Origin: Methylocystis sp. ATCC 49242
Lineage (GTDB): Bacteria; Pseudomonadota; Alphaproteobacteria; Rhizobiales; Beijerinckiaceae
Assembly: GCF_000188155.2 (NCBI RefSeq)
Contig: NZ_KE124774.1
Span: 2,858,356 to 2,922,355 of the forward strand
Direction: 5' to 3'
DNA length: 64,000 nucleotides
Shown: piece by piece, positions 45,479 to 49,549 of the stretch
Layout: each line of letters starts with the position of its first letter
Position numbering within the stretch: position 1 is the first letter of the stretch
Notes under the pieces: model-generated
What the model saw: only the letters and a program-made list of their open reading frames with translations
Databases searched by the model: none
What the model was told of the DNA's origin: nothing
Made by a program: the position numbers and the translations under genes

Positions 45479-45521
45479 GCTTGTAAAAACTGTTACGGAC
45501 TTCCGTAGCGATAGGTGATGT
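45479..45521. repeat. Left 43-bp direct repeat (att-like)
   Basis: This copy matches 48969-49011 at 42 of 43 positions (T at 45491, C in the other copy). It contains the dyad TACGGA-CT-TCCGTA, whose 2-bp centre resembles serine-recombinase crossover sites. It is a duplicate of the TIGR02301 3' end including the stop codon. Confidence 0.88.
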
Positions 45522-45575
45522 TTTCATGCTCGGTGATTAGGTCTCGATCTGAGACCTGTCCTCGCTTGCCGAAAT

Positions 45576-45645
45576 GCGGGAGTTCCGCACGCCCCTCGTG
45601 TTTCTCGTAAACACGAGGGGCGACTCACTTGCTCGTAGGGAGCAA
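45576..45645. repeat. Cluster of three hairpins in the island leader
   Basis: TGCGG/CCGCA (45576-45590 region), a perfect 14-bp stem CGCCCCTCGTGTTT/AAACACGAGGGGCG around CTCGT (45590-45622), and TTGCTC/GAGCAA around GTAGG (45629-45645) lie in a row before the cargo gene. They precede the gene start by ~50 bp. They could form a structured leader RNA, a terminator/antiterminator, or a recombination site folded as single strand; no choice is possible from sequence alone. Confidence 0.6.
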
Positions 45646-45693
45646 AGCTAATAGCCTATTCCTTAATGGATTATAAGAACTTAAGGGATCGAT

Positions 45694-45829
45694 GTGACCT
45701 ATTCTTTTTTATGCACCACTATGATTGGACTAACGTTGATAGCTTCATCTGCTCTTTGCTTCGCCGTGTACAAGTGGATCAATTACCGCCGGGCGCTCAC
45801 GGAAGCCCAAATTGCTTTGCGCGACCTAG
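45694..45829 (+). pseudogene. SNIPE-like gene fragment 1: membrane anchor
   Basis: About 45 codons encode VTYSFLCTTMIGLTLIASSA, one membrane helix, then KWINYRRALTEAQIALRDL, the start of a coiled coil. The fragment ends at the CTAG target site of the first IS. With the basic residues after the helix, the bulk of the protein is expected in the cytoplasm. Confidence 0.75.
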
Positions 45830-46692
45830 AGGGTGTTATGCACCTTGGATCATGAAATCTGCTGCGCGCTTGAGCATGAGACATGCGAAGGCGACGACGT
45901 GGAGTCCTGCGAGGGTCTGAGCATAGCGCTCGTAGTCTTTGACGAGCCGCCTGCATCGCGTCGCCCAGGCGAATGAACGCTCGACCACCCAGCGCTTGGG
46001 CAGCAACACGAAGCCCTTCTTCGCTTCGGCAAGTTTGACGACGCACAGTTCGGCGCCTTGCGCCTTCGCCGCCTCGGACGCCTTTTCGCCGGTGTAGCCC
46101 TGATCGACATAAACGAGTTCGACGCTTTCGCCTGTCACATCCTGCACGGCTGCGATGAGCTTGCCGACCTCGGCGCGGTCATCGACATTCGCCGGCGTGA
46201 CATGCAACGCCAGCAAATGGCCCAATGTGTCGACTGCCATGTGCAGCTTCGAGCCGCGCTTTCGCTTCGCGCCGTCATAGCCCGCTCGTGGGCCGCTCTC
46301 AGGGGTCGAGCGCAAGGTGCGGCTGTCGATGATCGCCGCCGTCGGCTCCGCCGCCCGCCCGGAAGCGACGCGCAACTGGGCGCGCAGATCCTGCGCAAGC
46401 GCCTCGAACACGCCCGCCGACAGCCAGCGCTGCGATTGCTGATACACGGCGAACCATGGCGGCAGATCGTTGGGCATGGCGCGCCAGGCGATGCCGTAGC
46501 GCAGCACGTAACGCAGGCCGTTGAACAGCTCGCGCAGCGAATGTTGACGCTGCGGCGCGCCTTCGTCCATGAGCGTCAGATAAGGCGCAACCAGCGACCA
46601 TTCTTCGTCGCTGACGTCAGACGGATAAGGTTTGCGAATCGGAGACATCCGATTCTACTAAGACAATCAATCACCAAAGTACATAACACCCT
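45830..46692 (-). mobile_element. IS5-family insertion sequence, 863 bp
   Basis: Terminal inverted repeats AGGGTGTTATGCACCTTGG and AGGGTGTTATGTACTTTGG (2 mismatches in 19) bound the element, which is flanked by CTAG on both sides (45826-45829 and 46693-46696), a 4-bp target duplication. One intact transposase gene fills it. The element is complete and recent-looking. Confidence 0.9.
45836..46648 (-). CDS. IS5-family transposase (intact)
   Basis: This 270-residue DDE transposase has the N-terminal YPSDVSDEEWSLVAPYL, first Asp in AAIIDSRTLRST, second Asp in VYVDQGYTGEKA and the Glu in RWVVERSFAWATRCRRLVKDYE. The DUF4096-like N-terminal module and the DDE order are typical of the IS5 family. 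It is uninterrupted and could be active. ATG 46648 lies just inside the right end. Confidence 0.93.
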   Translation of the reverse strand: MSPIRKPYPSDVSDEEWSLVAPYLTLMDEGAPQRQHSLRELFNGLRYVLRYGIAWRAMPNDLPPWFAVYQQSQRWLSAGVFEALAQDLRAQLRVASGRAAEPTAAIIDSRTLRSTPESGPRAGYDGAKRKRGSKLHMAVDTLGHLLALHVTPANVDDRAEVGKLIAAVQDVTGESVELVYVDQGYTGEKASEAAKAQGAELCVVKLAEAKKGFVLLPKRWVVERSFAWATRCRRLVKDYERYAQTLAGLHVVAFACLMLKRAADFMIQGA

Positions 46693-46696
46693 CTAG

Positions 46697-47372
46697 AGTT
46701 GCACTTCTCGCCGATAACCAATCTCGACGAAGAAAGAGGTCGCATTCAAACTGAAATTGAGCAGCTGGATCAAAAATTCGAGCAACTGAAATTTGCATAC
46801 CATACCCAATTCGAGAAAGCGAAGAGTTCCTGTATCCAAGAAATAGAAGCTATTAAGGCATCTTACAGAGAAAAGAAGGAAATTTATGACCATTTAGCTT
46901 CCGAAGTAGCTATTTTCGATGATCGTTTAGCTTTTGCCGAAATGGGAGTCTATGAGCCACATTTCGATTTCAGTGATAGTGAAGAATATAAACAGAATAT
47001 CTTGAGAATACGCGAAAATCAAAAGGAAATGATCTCACTGAAAACAGCAGTATTTTGTACTACAAGCTGGACTTTGGATGGTAGTCAGTCCAAAGGGCAG
47101 ACGATGACGAATCGTGCAATTAGGCTTACCCTGCGAGCATTCAACAATGAGTGTGAAGCGGCCATAGCTAACACTAGATGGAATAACGTCAACGCTATGG
47201 AAAAGCGAATTGTTAAAGCAAAAGAGCAGATAGACAACTTAAATAGCTCAAGTAAAATCTTCATATCTGATGATTTCTTGAAGCTTAAGTTGGAAGAGCT
47301 TTATCTTACCCACGAATATCGTGAAAAATTAAAGCATGAACGAGATGAACGTGCGGAGGCTGCCAGACTTCA
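46697..47372 (+). pseudogene. SNIPE-like gene fragment 2: coiled coil and DUF4041-like core
   Basis: About 225 codons between the two IS elements. The first half is a long coiled coil (EERGRIQTEIEQLDQKFEQL, EIEAIKASYREKKEIYDHL). It then has MGVYEPHFDFSDSEEYKQNI and WTLDGSQSKGQTM, TNRAIRLTLRAFNNECEAAI, followed by NTRWNNVNAMEKRIVKAKEQ, which match the DUF4041 pattern. AT-rich codon use differs sharply from the chromosome. The reading frame remains open to the second IS. Confidence 0.8.
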
Positions 47373-48307
47373 GAGTCCGTCCCAGAAGTTAGTCAACAAT
47401 TGCAGAGCTTTCGTAGCATGAGCCGAATCGACGCGAAACGCAGGAACACGAGCGCTGTGATATTGAGGTTTTCCCAATCCTTGGCCAGTCTTCTACAGCG
47501 GTTTAGCCAGGCGATTGATCTTTCGACGATCCAGCGCATGGGCAATTTCACGAAGCCCTTCGCCTGATCGGATCGTTTTATAATCTCGATTTTGAGACAC
47601 GGTAGGATTTTGCCCGTTGCGTCGGCGAAGATCGGTCCCTGATAGGCGCTGTCAGCCAACAGCTTTTCAAGAAAGGGAAACCGCCCATGCAACGTCGAAA
47701 GCAGCAAGACGCCGCCGTCTCGGTCCTGAATGTCGGCGCCGTGAACGACGGCGCCCATCAACAAACCTTGCGTATCGACGAGTACGTGGCGTTTCTTGCC
47801 TTTGATCTTTTTGCCGGCGTCATAGCCATGCGGATCAATGCGCGCCCCCCTTTTTCCGCGCTCTTCACGCTCTGACTATCGATGATCGCCGCGGTGGGGC
47901 TCGCCTCTCGTTCCGCTCGTTCGCGACACATGACGTAGAGCGCGTCGTGCATGCGATCCAGAACGCCGCACCAGGCCCAATCGCAAAAATAACGATACAC
48001 TGTGCTCTTCGGGGGAAAATCCTTGGGAATGTACCGCCATTGGCATCCCGTGCTCAGCACATACATGATGGCGTTGAACACCGCCCGCATGTCCACTTCA
48101 CGCTTGCGCCCGCCACGCTTGGCCGGAGGAATAAGCGGCGCCACATGCCCCCACTCCTCGTCCGTCACATCACTCGGATAACGTAACCTGTCGCGATTGT
48201 ATTTCGCCCGGTTTGCCTTCGTCCACATCGACGGCCTCCTACGAATCAGACCGCCTCCCATCCATCACAACAGATTCATTCGATTCAACATCTTTCAGGA
48301 CGGACAC
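47373..48307 (-). mobile_element. Second IS5-family insertion sequence, 935 bp
   Basis: Ends GAGTCCGTCC and GTGTCCGTCC (inverted, 9 of 10 identical, extending imperfectly to 16 bp) bound the element. TCA flanks both sides (47370-47372 and 48308-48310), the 3-bp TNA duplication typical of the IS1031-like IS5 groups. It differs from the first IS in ends, transposase and target, so there were two independent insertions. Confidence 0.88.
47393..48228 (-). CDS. IS5-family transposase in two frames (programmed -1 frameshift)
   Basis: The first frame starts at 48228 (MWTKANRAKYNRDRLRYPSD) and contains AAIIDSQSVKSAEKGG with the first Asp. The second frame, ending at 47393, carries LADSAYQG and RWIVERSIAWLNRCRRLAKDWE. 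They join by a -1 shift at the slippery run of five A and six G (C6T5 at 47845-47855 on the plus strand), which restores GG-RIDPHGYDAGKK in the correct place. Such shifts are normal in this IS group, so this is probably not a decayed gene. Confidence 0.85.
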
Positions 48308-48310
48308 TCA

Positions 48311-48935
48311 GCGGGAGGAGCAGCGTTTGCTGCGCGACATGGAGGAGGCCGAACGTCAAGAAGAACATTACACGAAGCTTCTAGAAAAGGCAAAATTAGA
48401 AGCAGCCAATATAACTGGAGAACGGATAAGTGCGTATGACGAACAGATAAAATTGCTTGAGAAACAGTTGGAAGAAGCGCACGCGAAGGCGGAGCGCGCC
48501 AAAGCTATGGCAGAGAAAACTCGATCTGGTTACGTTTACATTATCTCTAACATCGGTTCTTTCGGAGAAGGCGTAGTAAAAATCGGTTTAACTCGACGAC
48601 TCGATCCCTTAGATCGAGTTCGAGAGTTGGGTGACGCAAGTGTCCCATTCATTTTCGACACACACGCCATCATTTACAGTGACGATGCGCCACTTCTCGA
48701 AAGGATGCTTCATGCAGAGTTTGAACAAACACGAATAAACACCCAAAATTATAGGAAGGAATTTTTCCGAGCCTCTCTCGACGAGGTTGAAGTCGCCGTA
48801 AAGCGGCTAGCGCCCGACGCTCCATTTTTCAAAGACATTGAGGCTCAGGAATACCGTGAAACACTTTACAAGCGTCAACTACTCTTGGAACAAAATGACC
48901 TAGGAAATAACTCAGCGTTTCCTGATCAGATTTAG
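48311..48935 (+). pseudogene. SNIPE-like gene fragment 3: GIY-YIG nuclease domain
   Basis: About 208 codons: a heptad-rich helix (REEQRLLRDMEEAERQEEHY, EQIKLLEKQLEEAHAKAERA) then the Mug113/T5orf172 GIY-YIG domain with GYVYIISN, KIGLTRRLDPLDRV (catalytic Arg), RELGDASVPFIFDTHAII, and LLERMLHAEFEQTRINTQNY (catalytic Glu) before RKEFF. All key residues are present. A short in-frame start at 48339 lacks a good ribosome site, so expression of a soluble remnant is doubtful. Confidence 0.85.
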
Positions 48936-48968
48936 TAATTACCAAGCGGCACACCTGAAGGGTTTACC

Positions 48969-49011
48969 GCTTGTAAAAACCGTTACGGACTTCCGTAGCG
49001 ATAGGTGATGT
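48969..49011. repeat. Right 43-bp direct repeat (att-like)
   Basis: This is the chromosomal-side copy. It includes the stop codon (48983-48985) and last eight codons of the TIGR02301 gene, so that gene stays intact. The dyad TACGGA-CT-TCCGTA lies at 48984-48997. Confidence 0.88.
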
Positions 49012-49549
49012 CGAGCGACAGCCGCGACGCCTCGTCCAGATAGCGGGAAATCGCGGTTTTCGCATTGGGCGTGCAGACCCGATAGGCGAGTTCGTAGCCG
49101 CGAAAACCGCGGTTGAAGGAGGCGATGAATTTGTCCCGGCGCGGGCCGTTCGGCGCCTCGGCGTCGAGGAGGGCGGACATTTTGCCGCGCCAGTCGTCGC
49201 CGTCGCCCGCGCCGCAAAGGTCGCGCAGAAAGGACAGCGCCCCGAGCACTTCGGTGAGCCGCGTCATCTGCGCCTCATAGGGCGGGGGCGGCGCCTCGGC
49301 GCCCGTCGCGGGTTTGGCGGGCTCGGCGGCCTTGTCGCTTTTGCGGGCCTCGCGCTTCTTCGTCCGGGGCTCGGCGCGCTTCTTCTCCTTCTCCGCCGCG
49401 CGGGGAATGTCGCGCGAGGGCCGCGGCGCGGCGCGGCGGGAGGGGCCGTCCGCGCCAAAGAGATCGAGGATCCCCTGCGCGGAAGCCTCCGAGGCGAAGA
49501 GAAGCGCCGTCGCGACGGCGAGGGCGGCGGCCCCTTTGCGCCCGATCAT
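48983..49549 (-). CDS. TIGR02301 family exported protein
   Basis: This 188-residue protein has a signal peptide ([24 protein letters not shown]), a Lys/Arg/Pro-rich linker (30-90) and a C-terminal domain of the TIGR02301 family: [38 protein letters not shown] and [20 protein letters not shown], ending [12 protein letters not shown]. Function is unknown, but the family is widespread in alphaproteobacteria. Its start overlaps the pdxH stop (ATGA). Its 3' end is the integration target of the island and is duplicated at 45479-45521. Confidence 0.9.

What the first reader, a model, noticed from the sequence alone, without database searches (positions are those of the whole stretch)
45694..48935. 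SNIPE-like anti-phage gene inactivated by two independent IS insertions
Deleting 45830-46692 plus one CTAG copy, and 47373-48307 plus one TCA copy, fuses three fragments into one ~478-codon frame with no stop or shift at either junction. The restored protein has an N-terminal membrane helix, coiled coil, DUF4041-like core and GIY-YIG nuclease, the SNIPE order. Two different IS elements in one foreign gene suggest selection against its activity, or relaxed selection, after arrival.
Basis: partly seen in the sequence, partly recalled or inferred. Interest (0 to 1): 0.9.

Follow-up and report, generated by a model that had tools for sequence, protein, structure and literature searches.

The report
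Phage-defence gene broken by two insertions
A methane-eating bacterium picked up a small piece of foreign DNA carrying one known type of anti-phage gene, and two different jumping genes have since landed in it and split it into three parts, so it is most likely dead; the gene type is known, but the way this single gene seems to have arrived is unusual.

Summary
At 45694-48935 a SNIPE (PD-lambda-1) type gene is split by two different IS5-family elements: IS-A 45830-46692 (duplication CTAG) and IS-B 47373-48307 (TCA). Reading phases match across both junctions (478 codons plus stop), checked by arithmetic without joining. The pieces, searched apart, hit DUF4041, T5orf172/MUG113 and PADLOC PD-Lambda-1 (2.7e-69, 2.9e-88), and lie end to end on intact relatives at 58-71% identity. 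The catalytic glutamate is kept.

Selection against the gene is not supported. The genome holds at least 40 copies of IS-A and 25 of IS-B; 6 of 25 IS-B, this one included, lie within 680 bp of an IS-A (0.28 expected).

New here: the gene is the only cargo of a low-GC island (1,642 bp besides the ISs) between 43-bp repeats that copy the 3' end and terminator of a TIGR02301 gene. No integrase was found within about 211 kb, and 31 of 31 anchored Methylocystis loci lack the island. A Kiloniellales SNIPE has a similar layout, but flanking repeats are not clearly enriched around SNIPE genes. A separate IS66 insertion splits SNIPE in Rhizobium.

Verdict: a dead member of a known family with an interesting mode of arrival.

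The parts
45479..45521 (.). left copy of the 43-bp direct repeat (att-like)
   Evidence: 43 nt, 98% identical to 48969-49011; terminator-like hairpin in both copies
45522..45693 (+). leader of the island, strongly folded (several inverted repeats); role unknown
   Evidence: z -6.0 as DNA for 45479-45700; z -5.2 for this stretch; z below -3 upstream of only 1 of 36 other SNIPE genes
45694..45829 (+). SNIPE piece 1: GTG start and N-terminal hydrophobic helix, 45 codons + 1 nt (last 4 nt = CTAG duplication copy)
45830..46692 (-). IS-A, IS5 family, 863 bp, transposase 45836-46648 (-), 270 aa; at least 40 full-length copies in the genome
46697..47372 (+). SNIPE piece 2: coiled coil and DUF4041 domain (last 3 nt = TCA duplication copy)
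   Evidence: PF13250 4.6e-17; PD-Lambda-1 2.7e-69
47373..48307 (-). IS-B, IS5 family, 935 bp, transposase in two overlapping frames 47758-48261 and 47393-47764 (-); at least 25 near-identical copies, one partial, in the genome
48311..48935 (+). SNIPE piece 3: coiled coil and GIY-YIG (T5orf172/MUG113) nuclease; Glu aligned with E. coli E414 at 48699-48701
   Evidence: PD-Lambda-1 2.9e-88
48936..48968 (.). right tail of the island
48969..49011 (.). right copy of the 43-bp repeat, spanning the stop codon (48983-48985), last codons and terminator-like hairpin of the TIGR02301 gene
48983..49549 (-). TIGR02301/DUF2385 family gene whose 3' end is the insertion site

Best explanation
A single SNIPE-family gene (a membrane-anchored GIY-YIG nuclease that in E. 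coli cuts phage DNA during injection) entered this Methylocystis chromosome as the sole cargo of a small low-GC island. The island sits at the 3' end and terminator of a TIGR02301 gene and is bounded by 43-bp direct repeats, most simply by site-specific recombination with an enzyme supplied in trans or since lost. Two high-copy IS5-family elements then inserted by ordinary transposition. IS-A split the membrane helix from the cytoplasmic part and IS-B split DUF4041 from the nuclease, so anchored nuclease can no longer be made as one protein. Shown: sequence, domains, duplications, frame phases, empty site in relatives. Inferred: ancestral function, loss of function, route of arrival. Not resolved: order of the two insertions.
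For: Domain and PD-Lambda-1 matches of the separate pieces. Pieces end to end on intact relatives at 58-71% identity and aligned with the protein annotated PD-lambda-1 in lambdoid phage PhiR26_1 at 52% and 48%. Glu of LERMLH aligned with residue 414 of that protein and invariant in the 28 sequences of A2; E414A abolishes defence in E. coli (PMC13190303 section 5; that the two proteins share numbering is assumed). Target duplications typical of each IS. 43-bp repeats. No island in 31 of 31 same-genus loci where both flanks could be anchored. Nearest tyrosine integrase match about 211 kb away and nearest serine recombinase match about 273 kb away.
Against: The N-terminal piece is identified only by hydrophobicity and position. 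Predicted structures of the nuclease piece are of middling confidence (mean pLDDT 72.2 and 71.8), and the PDB fold searches gave no match at E 0.001 or better and no GIY-YIG entry among the 50 rows shown of each. No uninterrupted allele at this site and no integrase-bearing element using it were found. I saw no test of phage defence by an alphaproteobacterial SNIPE in what I read.
Confidence: 0.88

Rival explanations
1. Ordered, selected inactivation: IS-A landed first and separated the membrane helix, leaving an unanchored, toxic DUF4041-nuclease, and IS-B was then favoured because it disarmed it.
For: In E. coli SNIPE without its membrane helix is highly toxic through its nuclease, partly less so without DUF4041 (PMC13190303 section 5). 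The first in-frame start after IS-A is TTG 46699, so an unanchored protein is conceivable.
Against: Both ISs are identical to other genome copies (10 other IS-A of 30 examined, 18 other IS-B of 25), so the order cannot be read. IS-A/IS-B proximity recurs: 6 of 25 IS-B, this one included, within 680 bp of an IS-A. No ribosome-binding site or promoter was shown for the truncated frame.
Confidence: 0.12
2. The island is the remnant of a larger integrative element that lost its integrase by deletion, not a unit that moves as one gene.
For: Site-specific islands usually carry their integrase (recalled). SNIPE of M. suflitae lies on one contig with an integrase and a prophage tape measure protein, and E. 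coli PD-lambda-1 lies in a lambdoid phage record.
Against: Both repeat copies are intact and the gene fills the island tightly (172 bp before, 33 bp after), with no other gene fragment seen. A Kiloniellales MAG has a similarly compact layout.
Confidence: 0.4
3. The split is functional: the pieces are expressed separately and still act together.
For: Each piece has an open frame. The last piece extends 32 codons into IS-B as a 240-codon frame (48213-48935), and the middle piece has a 240-codon frame (46699-47421).
Against: The helix is detached from both other parts; both transposases read on the opposite strand; the promoter-like scan found 4 sites against 3.0 expected in shuffles. 53 of 63 distinct relatives have DUF4041 and nuclease in one frame.
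Confidence: 0.03

Closest known systems
SNIPE / PD-lambda-1 (E. coli; PMC9519451, PMC13190303)
   Same: N-terminal membrane helix, DUF4041, C-terminal GIY-YIG nuclease in that order; conserved catalytic Glu; middle and last pieces 52% and 48% identical
   Different: Interrupted by two ISs; lies alone in a chromosomal island instead of a phage; middle piece has about 22 extra residues in the coiled coil against P0001-P0003
Intact alphaproteobacterial DUF4041 proteins (a second Methylocystis genome G023 = P0001; Bauldia litoralis = P0002; Rhizobium ecuadorense = P0003)
   Same: 58-71% identity over the middle and last pieces, collinear; P0001 matches PD-Lambda-1 at 4.4e-161
   Different: Single intact frames at other chromosomal sites; of the three only the Bauldia copy showed flanking repeats (351 bp, 87%)
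SNIPE split by an IS66 element in Rhizobium leucaenae, R. lusitanum (two strains) and R. freirei
   Same: The insertion separates DUF4041 from the nuclease, as IS-B does here
   Different: One insertion, IS66 family; nearly identical DNA in four genomes, so one event
Integrase-less cis-mobilizable elements (CIMEs; described from recall)
   Same: att-like direct repeats at a gene 3' end, no recombinase inside, empty site in relatives
   Different: No partner element with the same repeats was found, and mobilisation was not shown

Membership tests
SNIPE / PD-lambda-1 | membrane segment near the N terminus | tested here: met
   best 19-residue window at residues 5-23, mean hydropathy 1.91; K/R follow it; hydropathy only, no topology predictor.: 59% of known homologues have one predicted TM, 7% two, 34% none
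SNIPE / PD-lambda-1 | DUF4041 domain | tested here: met
   PF13250, 62.1 bits, cut-off 27
SNIPE / PD-lambda-1 | C-terminal GIY-YIG (T5orf172/MUG113) domain | tested here: met
   60.8 and 57.7 bits, cut-offs 20 and 22.3; the fold search did not confirm it
SNIPE / PD-lambda-1 | catalytic Glu (E414 in E. coli) | tested here: met
   aligned with residue 414 of the PhiR26_1 protein; invariant in the 28 sequences of A2
SNIPE / PD-lambda-1 | PADLOC PD-Lambda-1 model | tested here: met
   232 bits (middle piece) and 295 bits (last piece); first piece no match
SNIPE / PD-lambda-1 | one continuous reading frame | tested here: not met
   three pieces; a pseudogene of the family, not a working member
SNIPE / PD-lambda-1 | defence against siphoviruses, membrane location, contact with tape measure protein | not testable with these tools
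   needs experiments
IS5 family (IS-A, IS-B) | IS5 transposase model NF033580 | tested here: met
   207.4 bits for IS-A; IS-B frames 130.7 and 80.5 bits against cut-off 110, so its second frame alone falls below
IS5 family (IS-A, IS-B) | terminal inverted repeats and short target duplication | tested here: met
   the IS-B ends (GAGTCCGTCC/GTGTCCGTCC) were read by eye
Integrative island / CIME | direct repeats at both ends with one copy completing a host gene | tested here: met
Integrative island / CIME | site without the island in relatives | tested here: met
   31 of 32 same-genus loci; one lacked the left anchor; 4 of the 36 same-genus genomes not examined
Integrative island / CIME | recombination by a partner integrase at the same att | tested here: inconclusive
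   no other copy of the repeat in the genome; only 3 of 149 family genomes matched the core at all, so uninformative; the genome has 34 tyrosine-integrase matches over the cut-off, the nearest about 211 kb away

The most novel reading that the evidence does not exclude
SNIPE can travel as a one-gene, recombinase-less integrative cassette that inserts at the 3' ends and terminators of host genes by att-like repeats of about 43-51 bp, with a recombinase borrowed in trans. The window (structured leader plus gene) and the Kiloniellales copy at the 3' end of a peroxiredoxin-type gene would be two independent examples.
Probability: 0.15. Interest if true: 0.6.

Novelty: new member of a known kind. 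Interest (0 to 1): 0.36.

Why it matters
It adds an alphaproteobacterial SNIPE with a readable life history: arrival as a single-gene island, then interruption by the host's own jumping genes. It shows that counts of defence genes can include dead copies. With the Rhizobium IS66 case it gives two independent insertions between DUF4041 and the nuclease. It also points to a compact mode of transfer for one-gene defence systems that can be tested directly.

Tried and rejected
Selection by double hit: rejected as evidence. Set-up: the 37 of 40 IS-A copies on the main contig and all 25 IS-B matches, placed uniformly; 0.28 IS-B expected within 680 bp of an IS-A, 6 observed, this pair included. Only 40 candidates were scored in each, so the copy numbers are lower bounds.

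Flanking repeats as a general SNIPE feature: not clearly supported. With 900-bp flanks, 2 of 52 SNIPE loci and 3 of 181 shifted controls (two of those three from one contig) had direct repeats of 40 bits or more (53 of the 63 loci were given, one dropped for a short flank). With 1,500-bp flanks the result leans towards enrichment, 5 of 48 against 2 of 84 (49 loci given, one dropped), but two of the five and both controls come from one contig.

Structured leader as a conserved SNIPE part: rejected, z below -3 in 1 of 36 relatives (36 of 63 loci given). The leader matched only itself and one weak 35-bp hit inside a predicted frame in 298 family genomes and nothing in plasmids. The large hairpin has no exact match in viral contigs; the small palindrome has 2, not followed up.

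Structure: two predictions of the nuclease piece and two PDB fold searches were uninformative. Sequence searches of solved structures found nothing. Rfam: nothing at gathering score in L158, one chance-level hit in the window stretch.

dN/dS was not usable because synonymous sites are saturated. Pfam COX14 on the first piece is below its cut-off (21.6 against 25) and is taken as a generic membrane-helix match.
Full report
What is there. The window lies on the main contig (4.3 Mb) of a six-contig genome. The genus is inferred to be Methylocystis: a same-genus genome, G013, has its SNIPE on a contig of 23,907 bp, the same length as the Methylocystis suflitae NLS-7 contig returned as L124, and both give the same best frame and 78.06% identity. 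At 45694-48935 three stretches on the + strand are separated by two insertion sequences on the - strand. IS-A (45830-46692) has inverted ends (23 bp, 91%, including the duplication) and CTAG duplications. IS-B (47373-48307) has ends GAGTCCGTCC/GTGTCCGTCC and TCA duplications. Both transposases match the IS5-family model. IS-B's transposase lies in two overlapping frames; 18 other copies are identical in sequence, which fits programmed frameshifting (recalled) better than decay.

The gene. The pieces were searched apart. The middle piece hits DUF4041 (4.6e-17) and the last piece T5orf172 and MUG113 (2e-16, 1.8e-15). Both hit PADLOC PD-Lambda-1 (2.7e-69, 2.9e-88) in successive parts of one profile: positions 54-277 for the middle piece and 280-479 for the last (PDLC03976). 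On three intact relatives (P0001-P0003) the middle piece matches at 58-63% and the last at 67-71%, end to end. The protein annotated PD-lambda-1 in Escherichia phage PhiR26_1 matches at 52% and 48%. Its residue 414 is Glu, and the window has the aligned Glu in LERMLH, invariant in a 28-sequence alignment. The first piece carries a hydrophobic stretch with K/R after it and has no significant match. Lengths 136, 676 and 625 nt add to 478 codons plus stop with phases that match.

How it would have worked. PMC13190303 (abstract, section 5 in full and passages read) describes SNIPE as an inner-membrane protein with a GIY-YIG nuclease and a DUF4041 domain that promotes DNA binding. It cuts phage DNA during injection. 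E414A and deletion of DUF4041 abolish defence, and removal of the membrane helix makes it toxic to the host. PMC9519451 (passages read) reports that 12 of the 21 systems of that screen lie in intact prophages. PMC12904381 (passages read) summarises SNIPE in the same terms. By homology the ancestor of the window gene did the same; this is inferred. In the present allele the helix, DUF4041 and nuclease lie in separate frames, so anchored nuclease cannot be made as one protein. The gene is most likely inactive.

Why two insertions. The genome has at least 40 full-length copies of IS-A and 25 near-identical matches of IS-B, one partial; in both searches only 40 candidates were scored. Of those examined, 10 other IS-A and 18 other IS-B are identical to the copies here. 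Using the 37 IS-A and 25 IS-B on the main contig, 6 IS-B, this one included, lie within 680 bp of an IS-A, against 0.28 expected under uniform placement. About 57 kb upstream the same two ISs flank a 374-bp stretch of open frame with no Pfam or PADLOC match. Close pairs therefore recur in this genome, so the double hit is not evidence of selection on this gene. The order of the insertions cannot be read. The idea that IS-A created a toxic unanchored nuclease which IS-B then silenced fits the published toxicity of the helix-less protein but is untested.

How it arrived. The unit is bounded by 43-bp direct repeats with one mismatch. The right copy spans the stop codon and a terminator-like hairpin of a TIGR02301 gene; that scan found 3 such hairpins in the region against 4.5 expected in shuffles, so the hairpin is suggestive only. 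Of 29 same-genus loci examined, 21 have the left flank joined to this gene at the spacing expected for an empty site, 7 have about 110 bp extra and 1 lacks the left anchor. Three further loci are at empty-site spacing. So 31 of 31 anchored loci, from 32 of the 36 same-genus genomes, lack the island. Between the repeats there are 1,642 bp of non-IS DNA at GC 0.44, against 0.66-0.68 outside, with 172 bp before and 33 bp after the gene. The leader folds far more stably than shuffles (z -6.0 for 45479-45700), which other SNIPE genes do not share (1 of 36). The nearest tyrosine-integrase match is about 211 kb away, of 34 over the cut-off, and the nearest serine-recombinase match about 273 kb away. 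The repeat occurs nowhere else in the genome. The simplest reading is site-specific integration at a gene 3' end by a recombinase in trans or since lost.

Is that layout general? In a Kiloniellales MAG (L129) an intact SNIPE (PD-Lambda-1 8.1e-167) lies between 51-bp repeats (88%). One copy spans the end of an AhpC/TSA-type peroxiredoxin gene (Pfam 1.4e-41; probably bcp, recalled). The larger frames of that 13-kb locus gave no integrase match. The MAG has 6 integrase matches elsewhere; I could not tie contig numbers to this record, so the rest of its 33-kb contig is not excluded. Bauldia litoralis has 351-bp flanking repeats (87%). Flanking repeats are not clearly more common than in shifted controls: 2 of 52 against 3 of 181, though a wider test gave 5 of 48 against 2 of 84. 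The general claim stays a hypothesis.

Other broken copies. Of 64 loci tested (58 from genomes, 5 viral, and L038, which repeats L124), 54 have one frame spanning DUF4041 and nuclease. In L124/L038 that frame lacks the N-terminal part, which lies in another frame. The 10 others: L157 and L170 cut by the end of the stretch held, L164 truncated or different at the C-terminal end, L154, L160 and L165 split between frames (drafts, so possibly errors), and L158/L161/L162/L163, where an IS66 element splits the gene at about residue 241 of P0001, the end of DUF4041, in nearly identical DNA (99.9-100%). Most SNIPE genes seen are thus intact, with two independent IS cases.

Novelty. The gene is a new, dead member of a known family. 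The paper searches (listings only, apart from the papers named) showed none whose title or listed abstract describes an IS-inactivated SNIPE or an integrase-less SNIPE cassette; this covers only the held open-licence library. The listing on integrase-less elements was not read further; what is said of CIMEs is recalled. Structure prediction added nothing decisive.

Noticed in passing
L158, L161, L162, L163: 2757-6711: SNIPE gene in Rhizobium leucaenae, R. lusitanum (two) and R. freirei is split by an IS66 element at the end of DUF4041; the four loci are nearly identical (99.9-100% over 11 kb), so one shared event.
   Followed up: partly
L129: 5684-7471: Intact SNIPE in a Kiloniellales MAG is flanked by 51-bp repeats (88%) at the 3' end of a peroxiredoxin-type gene; no integrase among the larger frames of the 13-kb locus: a layout like the window's.
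   Followed up: partly
window 45522-45693: Island leader with several inverted repeats (z -6.0 as DNA with its flanks); apart from itself only one weak 35-bp hit in 298 family genomes; role unknown.
   Followed up: partly
L010-L014, L025, L026, at the TIGR02301 3' end: About 110 bp of extra sequence sits at the same spot next to the TIGR02301 gene in 7 of 29 relatives' loci; in L012, L013, L025 and L026 it contains an inverted repeat by eye, while L010, L011 and L014 differ.
   Followed up: no
L180: 1168-3339 (own genome, about 57 kb upstream of the island, outside the window): Another IS-B/IS-A pair flanks 374 bp of open frame with no Pfam or PADLOC match, possibly a second broken foreign gene.
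   Followed up: partly
L038: 843-13040: M. suflitae SNIPE lies on one contig with a tyrosine integrase and a prophage tape measure protein; its N-terminal part is in a different frame from the rest (sequencing error not excluded).
   Followed up: partly
L147 and L148 (one Rhodobacteraceae contig): Two SNIPE copies with the same match statistics about 15 kb apart on one contig.
   Followed up: no
window, about 46774-46839 (middle piece): The window protein has about 22 extra residues in the coiled coil compared with P0001-P0003; no convincing counterpart among 30 relatives compared.
   Followed up: partly
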